Below are positions 1,829-11,841 of a stretch of DNA of 11,841 nucleotides, piece by piece. The stretch comes from Clostridiaceae bacterium (lineage in GTDB: Bacteria > Bacillota > Clostridia > UMGS1883 > JAAYMJ01). The stretch covers positions 1-11,841 of the forward strand of contig JAAYMJ010000189.1 in assembly GCA_012521455.1 (NCBI GenBank). The letters run 5' to 3'. Each line of letters opens with the position of its first letter. The stretch's first letter is position 1. The notes under the pieces were generated by a model. That model worked only from the letters and a program-made list of their open reading frames with translations, ran no database searches and was not told the DNA's origin. A program made the position numbers and the translations under genes.

Positions 1829-2407
1829 AAAAAAGCCTTTACCCGGGCTTTTTTTGGTTTTTACTTTTATATCCATTCCATCAACGTCCCACTGTATAAC
1901 TTTGCGGTTTGTTTCACGGCACACTTTCATTAGCTGGTTGTTGTATTCACCGTAGGGGGCCCTGAATAAGATTTCGCCCTCATACCCGGTTAACTCCCTG
2001 ATTTTCCTGTCGCACTCATCCAAGTCCTTTTTCATTTGCTCGGCGTTTAATTTGTTAAAGTGGGCGTGGCTGTCGGAATGGTTTGCTATCTCATGCCCCG
2101 CGTCATAGAGCTTTTTTACCGCTTCGGGGTATTTGTCCAAAAAATCCCCCACCACAAAAAAGGTGCATTTTACGTTTTCGTCCTTTAAGGTTTTTATTAT
2201 ATCGTCGATGTCGTCAGCGCCCCACGCGCAGTCAAAGGTGAGGGCGATTTTATTATCTTGCCTTTCAACCCTGTAAATCGGCACTTCCTTTTGGGGATTT
2301 GCCACGTTTATGGCTGTGTTTTTTGTCAAAGGAAGGCCTAAAATCAGCAATAGTATAATTAGCGCAAAGGTGATGGCTTTGTATTTGTCAATTATGTAAA
2401 TCCTCAT
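1802..2407 (-). CDS. Sporulation-type polysaccharide deacetylase, C-terminally truncated
   Basis: This is a carbohydrate esterase 4 / NodB-fold protein of the clostridial PdaB-like family, which removes N-acetyl groups from cell-wall or cortex glycan outside the membrane. The 201-residue product has one N-terminal membrane anchor (about 12-30), the catalytic TFD (57-59, in TFDCAWG), metal histidines in NHSDSH (109-114), RAPYGEY (149-155) and WDVDGMD (173-179). The start at 2407 is chosen over the in-frame codon at 2422 because GAGGAGGG lies 5 bases upstream. It overlaps the amidase end by 20 bases, so translation is probably coupled. Homologues continue about 55 residues beyond WDVD to a Leu-x-His motif and final helices. 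Here the frame instead runs through the shared terminator into antisense of the glycosyltransferase. The last motif is missing and activity is doubtful; it may be a decaying gene. Confidence 0.82.
   Translation of the reverse strand: MRIYIIDKYKAITFALIILLLILGLPLTKNTAINVANPQKEVPIYRVERQDNKIALTFDCAWGADDIDDIIKTLKDENVKCTFFVVGDFLDKYPEAVKKLYDAGHEIANHSDSHAHFNKLNAEQMKKDLDECDRKIRELTGYEGEILFRAPYGEYNNQLMKVCRETNRKVIQWDVDGMDIKVKTKKSPGKGFFLCFLQLFN
1828..1855. terminator. Bidirectional intrinsic terminator between convergent genes
   Basis: A 10-bp stem pairs seven A plus GCC (1828-1837) with GGC plus seven T (1846-1855) around an 8-base loop. It gives a U-tract in both directions: at 1849-1855 on the plus strand and at 1834-1827 on the minus strand. 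It begins inside the TAA of the glycosyltransferase, as expected for that gene's own terminator. It also lies within the minus-strand deacetylase frame, upstream of that frame's stop codon at 1802-1804. Confidence 0.88.
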
Positions 2408-3113
2408 GGCTACCCTCCTCAAAATATTTATTTACCGCGTCCAAAATTGCTTGTGCGATTTTTTCCTGATATTTTTCATCCATCAGCATTAATTCTTCTT
2501 CCTCGTTTGAAATAAAGCCGCATTCCACAATTACCGCGGGAATTTTTGCCTGTTTTAGGATAAAGACAGAGCTGTCGGCAGGCTTTGCGACCCTGTCGTT
2601 TTTCTTAAAAGAAACTTTCCTTAACTCTTCCTGTATAATCTTGCCTAAAACCTTGCTGCGGGCGTCGTTTGTTGAGTAAAAGACCTGCGCCCCGTAGTAT
2701 TGGGATTGGGTAAAGGTGTTCATGTGAATGCTTAAAAACACGTCAGCGCCGCTTTCGTTCATGATTTTTACCCTTGTATTCATGTCATCCCGCTTTTTAA
2801 TTCTTAGCCTTTTATCCTCATGGGGAGAAACTGCGCTGTCGTCAGTCCTTGTCATTATTACCTCATAGCCCGCCTTTTCAAGTTTTTTTTGAAGTTTTAA
2901 CGCAATCTGCAAATTCAAGTCCTTTTCAACGCTTCCTGATTTCCCCACAGCGCCCCCGTCAAACCCGCCATGTCCTGCGTCTAAGACAACCTTGTGGGTT
3001 GAAAGGGCTATGGAGTCTTTTACCCTGTGTTTTGATATGGTTATTGTAAGGTAGGAAACAATTATCAGCATGGCGATGAATAATACCGTTGACCGCCTGA
3101 TTAAAACTATCAT
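2388..3113 (-). CDS. cwlD: N-acetylmuramoyl-L-alanine amidase, CwlD-like
   Basis: This is an Amidase_3 zinc hydrolase that cleaves the bond between N-acetylmuramic acid and L-alanine in peptidoglycan. In spore formers, CwlD strips the stem peptide in the cortex so that a deacetylase can make muramic delta-lactam. The 241-residue product has a single N-terminal membrane segment (about 9-26) that exports or anchors it, then zinc ligands His48 (DAGHGG), Glu63 (SVEKDLNL) and His130 (SIHMN), with catalytic Glu197 (VECGFISN). Length and architecture match CwlD. The ATG at 3113 is preferred: the GGGGG-type ribosome site is 7 bases upstream, but only 1 base from the alternative ATG at 3119. It sits directly after the terminator of the preceding operon and is coupled to a deacetylase, which fits the CwlD/Pda partnership. 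No clear promoter was found in the short gap, and no sporulation-sigma consensus was recognised. Confidence 0.88.
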   Translation of the reverse strand: MIVLIRRSTVLFIAMLIIVSYLTITISKHRVKDSIALSTHKVVLDAGHGGFDGGAVGKSGSVEKDLNLQIALKLQKKLEKAGYEVIMTRTDDSAVSPHEDKRLRIKKRDDMNTRVKIMNESGADVFLSIHMNTFTQSQYYGAQVFYSTNDARSKVLGKIIQEELRKVSFKKNDRVAKPADSSVFILKQAKIPAVIVECGFISNEEEELMLMDEKYQEKIAQAILDAVNKYFEEGSHEDLHN

Positions 3114-5605: not shown

Positions 5606-6457
5606 TCATCCCTTAGGTAGTTCAAGCGTGATTTTCCCGATTTTGCAGGCCCTGAATTCGTCAAGTACTATTTTGGCGCCCCGGTCGTAGTCGATTTCAG
5701 CGCCAGGCAGGATAAAGCCACGCTTTTTGCATATTAATTCTAAGATTTCCACGCCTTTTGCCGAGTCCGTGGTTTCAATTTTATAGCGGGCGCAAAGTTC
5801 TTCTTTGTATTCTTTATTTAAATACTCCAAAAGGTGGAAGGAAAGCTCCACCACGTCAAGAATTTCGTCCTTTATCGCGCCTGTGTAGGCAAGGCGCAGC
5901 GCCGCCTCCTTGTCCTCAAACTTCGGCCACAAAATCCCTGGGGTGTCAAGAAGCTCAAAGCCTTCTTTTAACCTGATCCACTGCTTCCCTTTGGTAACCC
6001 CTGGCCTGTCGCCTGTCTGGGCGCTTTTACCGCCTGTGAATTTATTTATAAAGGAGGATTTCCCCACATTGGGGATTCCTACAACCATAATTTTAATCGG
6101 GCGGTTTACTATGCCCCGCTGTCTGTCCCGCTCAATTTTTTCTTTTAACAGTTCTTTTGTGATTTTAGGGATTTTGTTTAGGTTATATCCTGTAATTGAG
6201 TTAATGAGTAATGCACATCTACCCATTTTTTCATAGTGGGAAAGCCAAATTTGGGTAGCCTTGTCATCGGCTAAATCACATTTGTTTAAAAGGGTTAATT
6301 TGGGTTTATTTCGGGTTATTTTTTCAATTTCGGGGTTTTTGCTACTTTCAGGAATTCTGGCGTCAACCAGTTCGTAAACAATATCCACAAGTTTTAAGTT
6401 CTCGGAAATCAATTTCCGGGTTTTTGCCATGTGTCCTGGAAACCAATTAATTTGCAT
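5606..6457 (-). CDS. rbgA: Ribosome biogenesis GTPase RbgA (YlqF)
   Basis: RbgA is a circularly permuted GTPase needed for late assembly of the 50S subunit; it binds the immature 45S particle. The permuted order is visible: G4 NKCD (58-61) comes before G1 GIPNVGKS (127-134), then the G2 region RPGVTKG (151-157) and G3 DTPG (171-174). N-terminal PGHM carries His9, at the position of the catalytic histidine described in B. subtilis RbgA. The C-terminal part (about 200-283) matches the family's RNA-binding ANTAR-like region in length. The ATG at 6457 overlaps the lepB end by 11 bases, with GAGGT 8 bases upstream. It is placed with lepB and rnhB as in B. subtilis. Confidence 0.96.
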   Translation of the reverse strand: MQINWFPGHMAKTRKLISENLKLVDIVYELVDARIPESSKNPEIEKITRNKPKLTLLNKCDLADDKATQIWLSHYEKMGRCALLINSITGYNLNKIPKITKELLKEKIERDRQRGIVNRPIKIMVVGIPNVGKSSFINKFTGGKSAQTGDRPGVTKGKQWIRLKEGFELLDTPGILWPKFEDKEAALRLAYTGAIKDEILDVVELSFHLLEYLNKEYKEELCARYKIETTDSAKGVEILELICKKRGFILPGAEIDYDRGAKIVLDEFRACKIGKITLELPKG

Positions 6458-7181
6458 GTTTCAATACCTCGAACTTATTTATTGGCCAAAATCTCAATAC
6501 GGCTTTTCCTAAAATTGATTTTCTGTCCACCATGCCGATGTCGCTGGCACGGGAGTCGTGGCTGTTGTTGCGGTTATCGCCCATTACAAAGACGCAGTTT
6601 TCAGGCACAACCTGCGGCCCTGTTTGTTGGAAATACGGGCTTTGATTCATTTTTTCCTTGATATACGGCTCATCTATAGCAACACCGTCAACGTAAACCT
6701 TGCCTTCGGCGTAGTCAATGTAAATGGTTTGCCCTTCGGTTGCGATAACCCGTTTTACAAAGACTTTTTTAGGATTGCTTTTAGGCCTGAATATAATTAT
6801 GTCGCCGTTTTTGGGGGTGTATGGAAGGCGGGATACCACCAACCTGTCCCCGTCATGCAAGGTGGGGTACATTGAGTCGCCATCCACTAAAACAAGCGTG
6901 AATACAAAGTTTCTGATTAAGAGTGCGATTACCACCGCAAGGCCTAAAGTGAAAACCCAGTCTAAGATTTCTTTTTTATAGTTGATTTTTGGTTTTTCTT
7001 CCTTCCCCACTATTTCAACCGTTTGGGTTCCGCTTTCTTGGGTCTGTTGGAGGTTTTCATCATATATTTGGGTTTCTTCCTGCTGGCTTTCATTTAATAT
7101 TTGGTTTTCTTCTTGTATTTCCTTATTTTCTCCGTTTTGGCCGTTTTTGTTTATTTCGTCCATATTAAGACTTCCCTTCAT
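6447..7181 (-). CDS. lepB: Signal peptidase I with long acidic N-terminal extension
   Basis: Type I signal peptidase removes signal peptides from exported proteins at the outer face of the membrane. One membrane segment (about 73-93) is followed by catalytic Ser103 (GDSMYPT), catalytic Lys143 (FVKRVIA) and box E GDNRNNSHDSR (201-211). Before the membrane segment lie about 65 cytoplasmic residues rich in Gln, Glu and Asn with almost no hydrophobic residues, so the protein is 244 residues against about 185 for B. subtilis SipS. The ATG at 7181 has AAGG 8 bases upstream; an in-frame ATG at 7163 also has AAGG, 11 bases upstream, so the start is uncertain by six residues. The gene follows a terminator and heads a new transcript or relies on readthrough. 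A weak TTAACC ... TATATA pair (7240-7214, 15-base spacer) is a possible promoter. Confidence 0.95.
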   Translation of the reverse strand: MKGSLNMDEINKNGQNGENKEIQEENQILNESQQEETQIYDENLQQTQESGTQTVEIVGKEEKPKINYKKEILDWVFTLGLAVVIALLIRNFVFTLVLVDGDSMYPTLHDGDRLVVSRLPYTPKNGDIIIFRPKSNPKKVFVKRVIATEGQTIYIDYAEGKVYVDGVAIDEPYIKEKMNQSPYFQQTGPQVVPENCVFVMGDNRNNSHDSRASDIGMVDRKSILGKAVLRFWPINKFEVLKHAN

Positions 7182-9617: not shown

Positions 9618-10955
9618 CTACCTGAAATGCTTGTTAAATTTGTTCATCTTCTTCATCATTTTGGGGTTTGTAAACTGCTTCATCATTTTCTGCATTTGCT
9701 CAAACTGCTTTAGGAGCGCGTTTACGTCAGCTACCGTTGTGCCGCTGCCTTGAGCAATCCTTCTCTTTCTTGATGAATTGATGATACCAGGGTTTGCCCT
9801 CTCTTTTGGGGTCATGGAAAGTATTATCGCTTCGGTTTTAATCAGGGGCTTATCGTCAATGTTTGCCTCTTCCAGCGCCTTTTTGTTAATCCCCGGAAGC
9901 ATGCCGAGAATTTGGGATAAGGGCCCCATTTTTTTCATCTGCCTAAGCTGTTCCAAAAAGTCGTTTAAGTCAAACTGGCTTTTCCTGATTTTTTCCTCAA
10001 GTTCCGCCGCCTTTTTTTCGTCAAAGGCTTCCTGGGCTTTGTCAATTAAGGTCAAAACATCGCCCATGCCCAGGATACGGGAAGCCATGCGGTCGGGGTA
10101 AAAAGGCTCTAAATCCGAAAGCTTTTCGCCCATGCCCACAAATTTTATGGGCTTTCCGGTAACCGCCTTAACTGAAAGGGCCGCGCCGCCCCGGGTGTCA
10201 CCGTCAAGTTTTGTTAGGATTATGCCGTCAATGCCTAAGGTGTTATTGAAACTTTCCGCCACATTTACGGCGTCCTGACCCGTCATGGCGTCAACCACAA
10301 GCAGGATTTCAGTGGGGTTTACCGCCTCTTTCATGAGCTTTAGCTCTTCCATCAGCTCTTCATTTACATGAAGCCGCCCTGCTGTGTCTATGATTAGGGT
10401 ATCAAATTTTGATAAATCAAAATTATCCACAGCCTCTTTAGCAATGTCCACCGGATTTTTGGTTTCATCCGTGGAAAGTACGGGTATGTTCAGGGAATTT
10501 CCCACCACCTCAAGCTGCTTAATGGCGGCAGGCCTGTAAACGTCGCAGGAAAGTAAAACGGGGCGTTTTCCCTGTTTTCTAAGTATATTGGCAAGTTTGC
10601 CGCTTGTGGTGGTTTTTCCCGCGCCGTTTAAGCCCACCATCATAATGATTGTGGGGGGTTTGGGGGAAATGGTTATTTTAGCCTGGGTTGAGCCCATCAA
10701 ATTGACAAGCTCGTCGCGGATTATTTTAATAATCTGCTGACCCGGTGTGAGGCTTTCTAGGACTTCGCTCCCGATAGCTTTTTCATAGACGGTTTTTTCA
10801 AACTCTTTTACCACTTTAAAGTTGACGTCAGCCTCAAGGAGCGCAAGCTTTACTTCCCGCATTGCCTCTTTTACGTCTTTTTCGGTGACTTTACCTTTTC
10901 CCCTTATTTTTTTAAATGTTTGCTGGAGTTTATCCGACAAATTTTCAAACGCCAT
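9618..10955 (-). CDS. ffh: Signal recognition particle GTPase Ffh (SRP54)
   Basis: Ffh binds SRP RNA and signal sequences of nascent membrane proteins and delivers them to FtsY. The 445-residue product has the N-domain helical bundle (1-95) and the G domain with G1 GLNGAGKTT (108-116), DVYRPAA (138-144), DTAGR (190-194) and TKLDGD (248-253). The M domain (about 300-445) has the SRP-RNA binding motif SRKRRIAQGSG (395-405) and a methionine-rich C-terminus (MQKMMKQ, KMMKKMNKF). GGGAGA is 5 bases before the ATG, and the ylxM stop is 15 bases upstream. This is a standard full-length protein with nothing unusual. Confidence 0.98.
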   Translation of the reverse strand: MAFENLSDKLQQTFKKIRGKGKVTEKDVKEAMREVKLALLEADVNFKVVKEFEKTVYEKAIGSEVLESLTPGQQIIKIIRDELVNLMGSTQAKITISPKPPTIIMMVGLNGAGKTTTSGKLANILRKQGKRPVLLSCDVYRPAAIKQLEVVGNSLNIPVLSTDETKNPVDIAKEAVDNFDLSKFDTLIIDTAGRLHVNEELMEELKLMKEAVNPTEILLVVDAMTGQDAVNVAESFNNTLGIDGIILTKLDGDTRGGAALSVKAVTGKPIKFVGMGEKLSDLEPFYPDRMASRILGMGDVLTLIDKAQEAFDEKKAAELEEKIRKSQFDLNDFLEQLRQMKKMGPLSQILGMLPGINKKALEEANIDDKPLIKTEAIILSMTPKERANPGIINSSRKRRIAQGSGTTVADVNALLKQFEQMQKMMKQFTNPKMMKKMNKFNKHFR

Positions 10956-10970
10956 AGTATTCTCCCTATA

Positions 10971-11327
10971 TCAATTTAGCTGGTTAATTCTGTTTGCAAT
11001 ACCCTCTAGCCTTTTTCCGATTTTTTTGGCACAATTAATATCCTCTGTTTTCATAAGGGTATCAGCGCAATCGCTAATGTCTTTTGCGATACCGCAAATT
11101 TCAGTATATTTCTTATAAAGGCCTAGTTTTTCCTCGGTCTCGCAAATTAGCTTTTCGCCTCTTTTAATATTATCGCGCACCCCTTGGCGGGTTATACCCA
11201 GTTCCTGCGCGATTTCAGCCAAAGAGAGGTCGTTGTTGTAGTATAAATCTATTGCCTCGGCCTGCTTATCCGATAATATCCCTTTATAAAAATCATAAAG
11301 CAGGCTCATTTTATAATCCTTTTCCAT
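10971..11327 (-). CDS. ylxM: YlxM family SRP-operon DNA-binding protein
   Basis: YlxM (UPF0122) is a small helix-turn-helix protein encoded before ffh in Firmicutes; it has been linked to SRP assembly and GTPase control in streptococci. The 118-residue product shows the family opening KDYKMSLLYDFYKGILSDKQ and a sigma-70 region-4-like helix-turn-helix (LSLAEIAQELGITRQGVRDNIKRGEKLI, about 34-61). A helical C-terminus with three Cys follows (TEICGIAKDISDCAD and INCAKK). The ATG at 11327 is kept because residues before the internal Met7 also match family members, although Met7 has its own AAAAGG site. The likely site for the first ATG, AGGCGGTG, overlaps a hairpin arm. Confidence 0.94.
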   Translation of the reverse strand: MEKDYKMSLLYDFYKGILSDKQAEAIDLYYNNDLSLAEIAQELGITRQGVRDNIKRGEKLICETEEKLGLYKKYTEICGIAKDISDCADTLMKTEDINCAKKIGKRLEGIANRINQLN

Positions 11328-11337
11328 AATAACACCG

Positions 11338-11362
11338 CCTGTAAAGCCAAAAACTTTACAGG
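11338..11362 (-). promoter_or_regulatory. Hairpin overlapping the ylxM ribosome binding site
   Basis: CCTGTAAAG (11338-11346) and CTTTACAGG (11354-11362) form a perfect 9-bp stem with a 7-base loop in the gap before ylxM. In the minus transcript the downstream arm ends in AGG, which is the start of the ylxM site AGGCGGTG. The adjacent CACC can also pair with GGTG if bases bulge. There is no U-tract, so this looks like a translation-controlling hairpin rather than a terminator. Confidence 0.5.
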
Positions 11363-11369
11363 TGATATT

Positions 11370-11841
11370 TTAACGGAAGAACTTGAATTTGTCAAGGAAT
11401 TTTTTAAATTTTCCTTTGTCTTCGTCCTTATCCTGTGGTTCTTCCTCTTCTTTTGGCTCTTCTTGAGTTTCTTTTGCTTCTTCTAATTTACCGTCCGGCT
11501 TTTCATATACCCCGTCAATTTCATCCTGAATTTCGTCCAATTCGCTTTGGATTTCTTCCATGTCCTGTATTGTTTTATTCATTTCAAGCTGGATTTGGGA
11601 AATTTCTTTTTCAACGGCCTTGATTTCTTCCTTTATTTCCTCAATTTCTTCTTCTGTTTCTTTTACTTCTTCCTCTAAATTTTCAATCTTTTCCTCAACT
11701 TTGCCGATTTCTTTTACTGTTTCATAAACTGGCTCATCTTTTGGCTCATCTTTTATTTTTTCTTTTATTTCTTCTTTTACTTCTTCAACCTGCTGGTCAT
11801 CGGCCTCTTCAATGGTATTGTCAAAGAGGGCTTTTGCAAAG
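11370..11841 (-). CDS. ftsY: Probable FtsY C-terminus with long acidic coiled-coil tail (cut by window edge)
   Basis: The frame is open to the right edge; 156 residues are visible. The first ones, FAKALFD, match the usual end of FtsY, the SRP receptor GTPase (typically ...FDPEEFxxALF), and ftsY is the normal neighbour of ylxM-ffh. Instead of stopping, the protein continues for about 149 residues. A Glu/Lys-rich linker comes first, then a roughly 65-residue heptad pattern of Ile/Val/Leu/Met from VEEKIENL to DEIDGV that should form a coiled coil. A Pro/Glu-rich acidic segment follows, and the end is GKFKKFLDKFKFFR, a basic aromatic helix. Glu makes up 44 of 156 residues. FtsY proteins usually carry the acidic domain and membrane helix at the N-terminus, so this looks like the arrangement at the other end. 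The assignment rests on seven residues plus context; an unrelated coiled-coil protein is the alternative. Confidence 0.6.
   Translation of the reverse strand, partial: FAKALFDNTIEEADDQQVEEVKEEIKEKIKDEPKDEPVYETVKEIGKVEEKIENLEEEVKETEEEIEEIKEEIKAVEKEISQIQLEMNKTIQDMEEIQSELDEIQDEIDGVYEKPDGKLEEAKETQEEPKEEEEPQDKDEDKGKFKKFLDKFKFFR

What the first reader, a model, noticed from the sequence alone, without database searches (positions are those of the whole stretch)
11370..11841. Presumed FtsY carries a C-terminal acidic coiled-coil tail ending in a membrane-type helix
Seen: the frame entering from the right edge begins FAKALFD and then runs about 149 more residues. They are glutamate-rich with a heptad-like stretch of around 65 residues, and end in the basic, Phe-rich GKFKKFLDKFKFFR. 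Known: FtsY normally ends within a few residues of its ALF motif, and its acidic, membrane-targeting region is N-terminal, often starting with a short basic/aromatic amphipathic helix. Inference: this lineage may have moved or duplicated the membrane-targeting and acidic module to the C-terminus, or fused a separate coiled-coil partner to the SRP receptor. The tail could tether the receptor or oligomerise it.
Basis: partly seen in the sequence, partly recalled or inferred. Interest (0 to 1): 0.72.

Follow-up and report, generated by a model that had tools for sequence, protein, structure and literature searches.

The report
SRP receptor with a reversed-position tail
A gut Clostridia bacterium has a protein-targeting receptor (FtsY) that carries its acidic spacer and membrane-sticking tip at the tail end instead of the front, an arrangement that also turned up in several other Clostridia and suggests that this part works from either end of the protein.

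Summary
The window is a whole contig whose right edge cuts ftsY; the rest of the gene ends contig G000:C191 (26-base exact overlap, same frame, order smc-ftsY-ylxM-ffh). The joined 458-aa protein exists intact (P0001: 100% identity and coverage, 20 contigs, longest 154 kb), so the tail is no assembly artefact. It is a genuine FtsY (TIGR00064, 364.8 bits, cut-off 260.7) with an ordinary alpha-N1-type start, no N-terminal acidic domain and a 148-aa C-terminal tail: a heptad stretch (0 of 2000 shuffles reach it), a predicted 75-residue helix, a disordered acidic linker, then GKFKKFLDKFKFFR. The tail search found only P0001. The architecture recurs: of 275 distinct FtsYs read (sample enriched for long frames), 11 have tails of at least 40 aa; 6 of these are acidic with an aromatic/basic tip, at six separate places on the NG tree (some nodes weak). 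In Shuttleworthella relatives the tip is conserved while the linker is rewritten. Best reading: a mirror-image A domain, with spacer and first-contact lipid tip placed C-terminally. Membrane binding and function are inferred; homology to N-terminal A domains is not shown.

The parts
11370..11840 (-). 3' end of ftsY: FAKALFDN (end of the NG domain) + 148-aa C-terminal tail + stop; the rest of the gene is on contig G000:C191 (about 2071-3001)
   Evidence: whole protein = P0001
11508..11732 (-). long acidic helix with heptad repeat (P0001 residues 339-413)
   Evidence: heptad test; AlphaFold2 helix, pLDDT 62 in block 341-350 and 77-87 in blocks 351-410
11415..11507 (-). disordered acidic linker (P0001 residues 414-444)
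   Evidence: block pLDDT 30-46; sequence
11373..11414 (-). C-terminal aromatic/basic tip GKFKKFLDKFKFFR (P0001 445-458), proposed lipid-binding helix
   Evidence: (helix 445-454, low confidence)
11322..11378 (-). RNA hairpin over the last ftsY codons, the stop and the ylxM start; possible translational coupling
   Evidence: -25.7 kcal/mol, z -6.6, 0 of 200 shuffles as stable
10971..11327 (-). ylxM (UPF0122), next gene of the SRP operon
9618..10955 (-). ffh (SRP54), SRP partner of FtsY
   Evidence: TIGR00959, 625.7 bits

Best explanation
A true SRP receptor, FtsY, whose acidic A-domain-like module sits at the C-terminus in mirror order: NG domain, acidic spacer (here a long coiled coil plus a disordered linker), aromatic/basic tip. 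The short N-terminal alpha-N1-type helix gives the stable, SRP-controlled membrane contact as in other FtsYs. The C-terminal tip takes the part of E. coli's alpha-A1: a first, reversible contact with anionic lipid at the end of a long negatively charged tether that keeps the NG domain off the bilayer until SRP docks. Here the spacer may also bring receptors together through the coiled coil. Shown: the gene, its architecture, the recurrence of the architecture, and tip conservation in one other genus. Inferred: lipid binding, tethering, oligomerisation and equivalence to alpha-A1.
For: FtsY identity and intact fusion on 20 contigs. Heptad and helix. Recurrence: of 275 distinct FtsYs read, 11 have tails of 40 aa or more: 6 acidic with an aromatic/basic tip, 3 RdgB fusions and 2 others. 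The six tips read FKKFLDKFKFFR, NFGFGWFKNKKKKNKDKK, SGGFFSFFKKKK, RGAFFGFFRRKRKE, KKKHWWSFGKG, KQKKWLFW. All six meet a strict tip rule (>=3 aromatic and >=4 K/R in the last 20) that 5 of 271 ordinary FtsY ends meet. Six Fitch changes on the NG tree. 0 of the 11 long C-tails coexist with an acidic N-extension of 40 aa or more, against 75 of the 264 others (Fisher p 0.04, not corrected for relatedness). N-terminal modules are built the same way outwards: 65 of 69 carry an aromatic/basic first 20 residues, 1 of 69 a mid-module one. In a Shuttleworthella relative (P0154) the linker is rewritten (41/121 identical, 35 gaps) while the tip is kept (10/14). E. coli alpha-A1 gives Dynamic and alpha-N1 Stable membrane binding, and the acidic A domain likely repels the membrane (passages of PMC5533587).
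Against: No homolog of this tail beyond its own 90% cluster (1 of 7995 scored), so selection on this very tail cannot be measured. Tip amphipathicity is not beyond its composition (shuffle p 0.28), nor is its likeness to N-terminal tips (118 of 1000). None of the three other mirror tails tested has a heptad signal (L088, L173, L252); two were not tested. The predicted tip helix has low confidence. Under a looser tip rule (>=2 aromatic, >=3 K/R) 27 of 271 ordinary ends pass. Within its own short tail the L297 tip is not enriched beyond chance (P 0.075 aromatic, 0.22 basic). Two other long tails (L243, L287) lack a basic tip. The N/C exclusion holds only for long tails: of 10 tails of 12-39 aa, 5 (L172, L216, L238, L245, L253) sit on FtsYs with N-extensions of 56 aa or more. 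Some tree nodes that separate the cases are weak (L297 0.11, L292 0.41 at the nearest node; L173 and L252 lie in one 18-member group with partly unsupported inner nodes). The six cases were gathered by a rule I set after seeing the first ones.
Confidence: 0.6

Rival explanations
1. The coiled coil is the point: it dimerises or trimerises FtsY or binds a partner, and the tip is secondary.
For: Strong heptad with Ile/Val/Met/Leu at 'a' and mostly Ile/Val/Leu at 'd'; 75-residue predicted helix. Two same-order relatives, L017 and L029, rank first and third by heptad score among 72 N-extensions.
Against: Three other mirror tails tested have no heptad signal yet carry a tip. No partner identified; oligomer state not modelled.
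Confidence: 0.2
2. Near-neutral growth: a lost stop codon or repeat expansion added a harmless acidic tail.
For: Acidic linkers change length and sequence fast (101-211 aa in 37 Shuttleworthella-type proteins); 10 of 274 FtsYs have tails of 12-39 aa, mostly acidic and without an aromatic/basic tip.
Against: In Shuttleworthella relatives the tip is kept while the linker is rewritten; six tails end alike; the heptad in the window is not what drift gives. None of this measures selection on the window's own tail.
Confidence: 0.12
3. Contig-join or binning artefact.
For: The window and the NG domain are on two contigs that overlap by only 26 bases.
Against: The window alone reads through ALF into the tail; the joined protein is in the database at 100% on 20 contigs, longest 154 kb; operon order fits.
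Confidence: 0.02
4. Fusion of a separate downstream coiled-coil gene.
For: FtsY-RdgB fusions (L055, L061, L063) show that ftsY can fuse to another gene (domain call on L063 only); rdgB follows ftsY as a separate ORF in L088.
Against: No acidic ORF among those shown after ftsY in 24 same-order loci. Pfam hits of the tail are below cut-off in the 25 of 72 shown. A free-standing tail homolog of the tail's own length was not searched for.
Confidence: 0.06

Closest known systems
E. coli-type FtsY with N-terminal A domain (alpha-A1, acidic stretch, alpha-N1, NG)
   Same: Same kinds of parts: distal tip, acidic spacer, alpha-N1-type helix, NG GTPase
   Different: Tip and spacer are at the C-terminus, in mirror order; the spacer is a long predicted coiled coil
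Short Clostridia FtsYs with no A domain (e.g. P0002, P0018, L035)
   Same: Same kind of N-terminus and NG domain, about 70% identical
   Different: They end at the ALF motif
Mirror-type FtsYs found here: Shuttleworthella satelles (P0125 = L252), Ruminococcus MAG L088, G150 (L173), G562 (L292), G510 (L297)
   Same: NG, acidic tail, aromatic/basic C-terminal tip, short N-terminus
   Different: None of their tails was a hit of the window tail; tails 45-170 aa; no heptad signal in the three tested
FtsY-RdgB fusions (L055, L061, L063)
   Same: C-terminal linker rich in Glu/Ala/Pro on an FtsY without an A domain
   Different: The linker ends in an XTP/dITP diphosphatase domain, not a tip

Membership tests
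FtsY (SRP receptor) | NG GTPase of the FtsY equivalog family | tested here: met
   TIGR00064 364.8 bits against cut-off 260.7; the Ffh model is below its cut-off
FtsY (SRP receptor) | GTPase motifs GxNGxGKTTT, DTAGR, TKLDG | tested here: met
   present in P0001 (sequence)
FtsY (SRP receptor) | alpha-N1-type sequence directly before the NG domain | tested here: met
   GFFKRLKEGLNKTRNAF; G9, F11, L14, G17, T21, R22 invariant in a 28-row FtsY alignment; helices 3-17 and 19-35 predicted, the first ten residues with pLDDT 44. Lipid binding not tested
FtsY (SRP receptor) | gene context smc-ftsY-ylxM-ffh (usual order recalled) | tested here: met
FtsY with E. coli-type A domain (optional; called non-essential in PMC2780400, passage) | acidic domain with lipid tip N-terminal to NG | tested here: not met
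   only 8 residues precede the GFFKRL helix; the acidic stretch is C-terminal
FtsY (SRP receptor) | SRP-dependent GTPase activation and targeting | not testable with these tools
   needs biochemistry
Known Pfam coiled-coil families | score above the curated cut-off | tested here: not met
   best hit 23.5 bits against cut-off 45; the 25 of 72 shown are all below cut-off

The most novel reading that the evidence does not exclude
Mirror-image FtsYs are a recurrent, repeatedly evolved architecture in Clostridia: the spacer and first-contact lipid tip of the SRP receptor is position-independent and has been placed at the C-terminus five or six times in the FtsYs read here, in place of an N-terminal A domain. 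In the window's lineage the spacer is a rigid coiled-coil rod that may make the receptor multivalent at the membrane.
Probability: 0.45. Interest if true: 0.66.

Novelty: new variant of a known kind. Interest (0 to 1): 0.55.

Why it matters
The precise roles of the poorly conserved FtsY A domain were described as unclear in 2017 (PMC5533587, passages read). If the same kinds of parts work from the opposite end of the protein, the A domain acts as a charged tether with a lipid tip rather than through a fixed geometry at the N-terminus. These natural swaps give ready-made constructs, one from a named strain (Shuttleworthella satelles DSM 14600), to test that directly.

Tried and rejected
Tail as a copy of SMC coiled coil (smc lies just upstream): against the 387-aa smc fragment on C191 the best local match is 40% over 47 aa, E 0.06 in a single-sequence comparison, with several overlapping registers, so generic coiled coil; the rest of smc was not compared. 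Tail as homolog of N-extensions (8 tested): z about 5 against shuffles for L017, L019 and L029, 4.3 for L121, 0.8 to 3.0 for the other four; but the reversed sequences score alike (119, 93, 105 against 111, 102, 114 for the first three), so composition and periodicity only. Tip homology to N-terminal tips (74 compared): MFKKFISKFKK looks close, but 118 of 1000 shuffles reach the score. Hydrophobic moment does not separate the tip from shuffles. Downstream partner gene: none seen. Tail conservation in relatives of L088: in none of 9 family genomes, nor in the 79 of 149 phylum genomes that matched at E 1e-100, does the alignment pass residue 319 of 456-457, so L088 stands on one MAG. Genus of G150: no other genome held. 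No Rfam hit in the window. Literature (8 listings; passages only of PMC8321541, PMC7987157, PMC5533587, PMC2780400): no C-terminal A domain or lipid tip on FtsY seen in these; the library lacks most subscription journals.

The survey is not a frequency estimate. Regions were chosen largely for long open frames; one search took 19 of the 20 remaining over-cut-off FtsY matches plus G003; match lists were cut. Dropped before counting: tblastn matches under 250 bits, identical cores, and the window genome's own three loci (replaced by P0001).

Full report
What is there. The window is the whole contig G000:C277 (contig length). Its right edge cuts a minus-strand gene: FAKALFDN, then 148 residues, then a stop at 11370. 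The missing part is at the end of contig G000:C191: the smc 3' end, then an FtsY starting MSGQNEKKGFFKRLKEGLNKTRNAF and running to FAKALFDN at the contig end. The two contig ends share 26 identical bases in the same frame. ylxM and ffh follow in the window, so the order is smc-ftsY-ylxM-ffh. The joined 458-aa protein is in the protein database at 100% identity and coverage (P0001; 7 member sequences, 20 contigs, longest 154,025 bases). Of the 120 hits listed there (7997 scored), the other 119 cover 64-68% of it, that is, not the tail. A search with the tail (residues 309-458) found P0001 and nothing else among 7995 scored candidates; candidates were limited to 0.55-1.75 times the whole protein's length, so a free-standing tail homolog would not have shown.

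Anatomy. P0001 is FtsY by NCBIfam (364.8 bits against 260.7; the match ends at residue 308). The FtsY chains among the 60 PDB sequences shown (of 73) match within residues 6-310. AlphaFold2 with a 28-row alignment gives the NG fold, a low-confidence helix at 317-332, a 75-residue helix at 339-413 (pLDDT 77-87 in blocks 351-410), disorder at 415-444 and a short low-confidence helix at 445-454; Foldseek ranks FtsY structures first. The heptad repeat is not matched by any of 2000 shuffles. Net charge is -38 before the last 15 residues and +6 in them.

Relatives. The same-order FtsYs read end within 8 residues of the NG end. Some have an N-terminal acidic module (L017: MLFWKKKK, then an acidic heptad stretch, then GFFARL and NG), some have none. 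N-terminal modules across Clostridia are built alike: aromatic/basic tip first, acidic body, then the GFF-type helix and NG. 65 of 69 distinct acidic extensions of 60 aa or more have such a first 20-mer, 1 of 69 a middle 20-mer.

Recurrence. Reading 275 distinct FtsY cores (274 plus the window) gave 11 with C-tails of 40 aa or more. Six are acidic with an aromatic/basic tip: the window, L088 (Ruminococcus MAG, 155 aa), L173 (G150, 113 aa), L252 (170 aa), L292 (G562, 68 aa) and L297 (G510, 45 aa). L252 is Shuttleworthella satelles DSM 14600 (P0125, 100%; Lachnospiraceae). Three are FtsY-RdgB fusions (domains checked on L063), and two, L243 and L287, are a sister pair whose tail has no basic tip. 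All six tips meet a strict rule that 5 of 271 ordinary ends meet; a looser rule is met by 27 of 271. On a FastTree of the NG domain the six fall in six places (Fitch count 6). Support is uneven: the nearest nodes of L297 and L292 have 0.11 and 0.41, and L173 and L252 lie in one 18-member group with partly unsupported inner nodes, so the true number could be five. The window's parent node (support 0.98) holds 20 sequences; of the 14 names shown, most are same-order, one (L034) is from another order, and both N-extended and short forms occur.

None of the 11 long C-tails also has an acidic N-extension of 40 aa or more, against 75 of 264 others (Fisher p 0.04, not corrected for relatedness). This does not extend to short tails: of 10 tails of 12-39 aa, 5 sit on FtsYs with N-extensions of 56 aa or more. 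The sample was enriched for long frames and is not a frequency estimate.

Evidence that such tips matter. Of 120 listed relatives of L252 (7971 scored), 34 cover it fully. Across 37 proteins with this kind of tail (P0121-P0157, one an N-terminally incomplete piece) the linker runs from 101 to 211 aa, but only five tip variants occur. P0154 keeps 278/304 of NG and 10/14 of the tip, but only 41/121 of the linker with 35 gaps. P0157 keeps 270/304, 10/13 and 47/124 respectively. Most of the 37 are close variants of one type; the independent comparisons are few (S. satelles type, P0154, P0156/P0157).

Mechanism. In E. coli the extreme N-terminus (alpha-A1) mediates a Dynamic and alpha-N1 a Stable membrane mode, and the acidic A domain likely holds the protein off the membrane (passages of PMC5533587). 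Membrane localisation is required for targeting, the A domain as such is called non-essential, FtsY derivatives tethered by a transmembrane domain are functional, and C-terminal GFP/YFP fusions work (passages of PMC2780400). A tether on the C-terminus is therefore plausible. I infer that the C-terminal tip replaces alpha-A1, that alpha-N1 is unchanged, and that the coiled coil sets distance or valency. None of this was measured here.

Limits. The window's own tail has no divergent homolog found, so its conservation cannot be tested. Tip amphipathicity and tip likeness are within composition. Homology between N- and C-terminal modules is not shown; 'moved' is an inference from architecture, and independent origin of similar parts is equally possible.

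Noticed in passing
window 11322-11378 (-): Strong RNA hairpin (z -6.6) pairing the last ftsY codons and stop region with the ylxM ribosome-binding site and start codon; may couple ylxM translation to reading through the FtsY tip. No Rfam match in the window.
   Followed up: partly
L055, L061, L063: FtsY fused through a Glu/Ala/Pro-rich linker to an RdgB/HAM1 XTP/dITP diphosphatase in gut Clostridia MAGs (domain call on L063 only); in L088 rdgB is the next separate ORF.
   Followed up: partly
L243 and L287 (G382, G577): Sister FtsYs with 93-97 aa C-tails of another kind: acidic start, then an aromatic-rich end with few or no basic residues.
   Followed up: no
window 6447-7181 (-): ORF that reads like signal peptidase I (recalled, not searched) with a long Glu/Gln-rich N-terminal extension of about 65 residues before the membrane anchor.
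   Followed up: no
P0237: A 595-aa FtsY hit with precomputed SMC-type Pfam domain PF02463 (name recalled), perhaps a read-through of the adjacent smc and ftsY genes.
   Followed up: no
G000:C60:4361-5125: Third SRP-type GTPase in the genome (397-aa frame), perhaps FlhF, which would suggest flagella; not checked.
   Followed up: no
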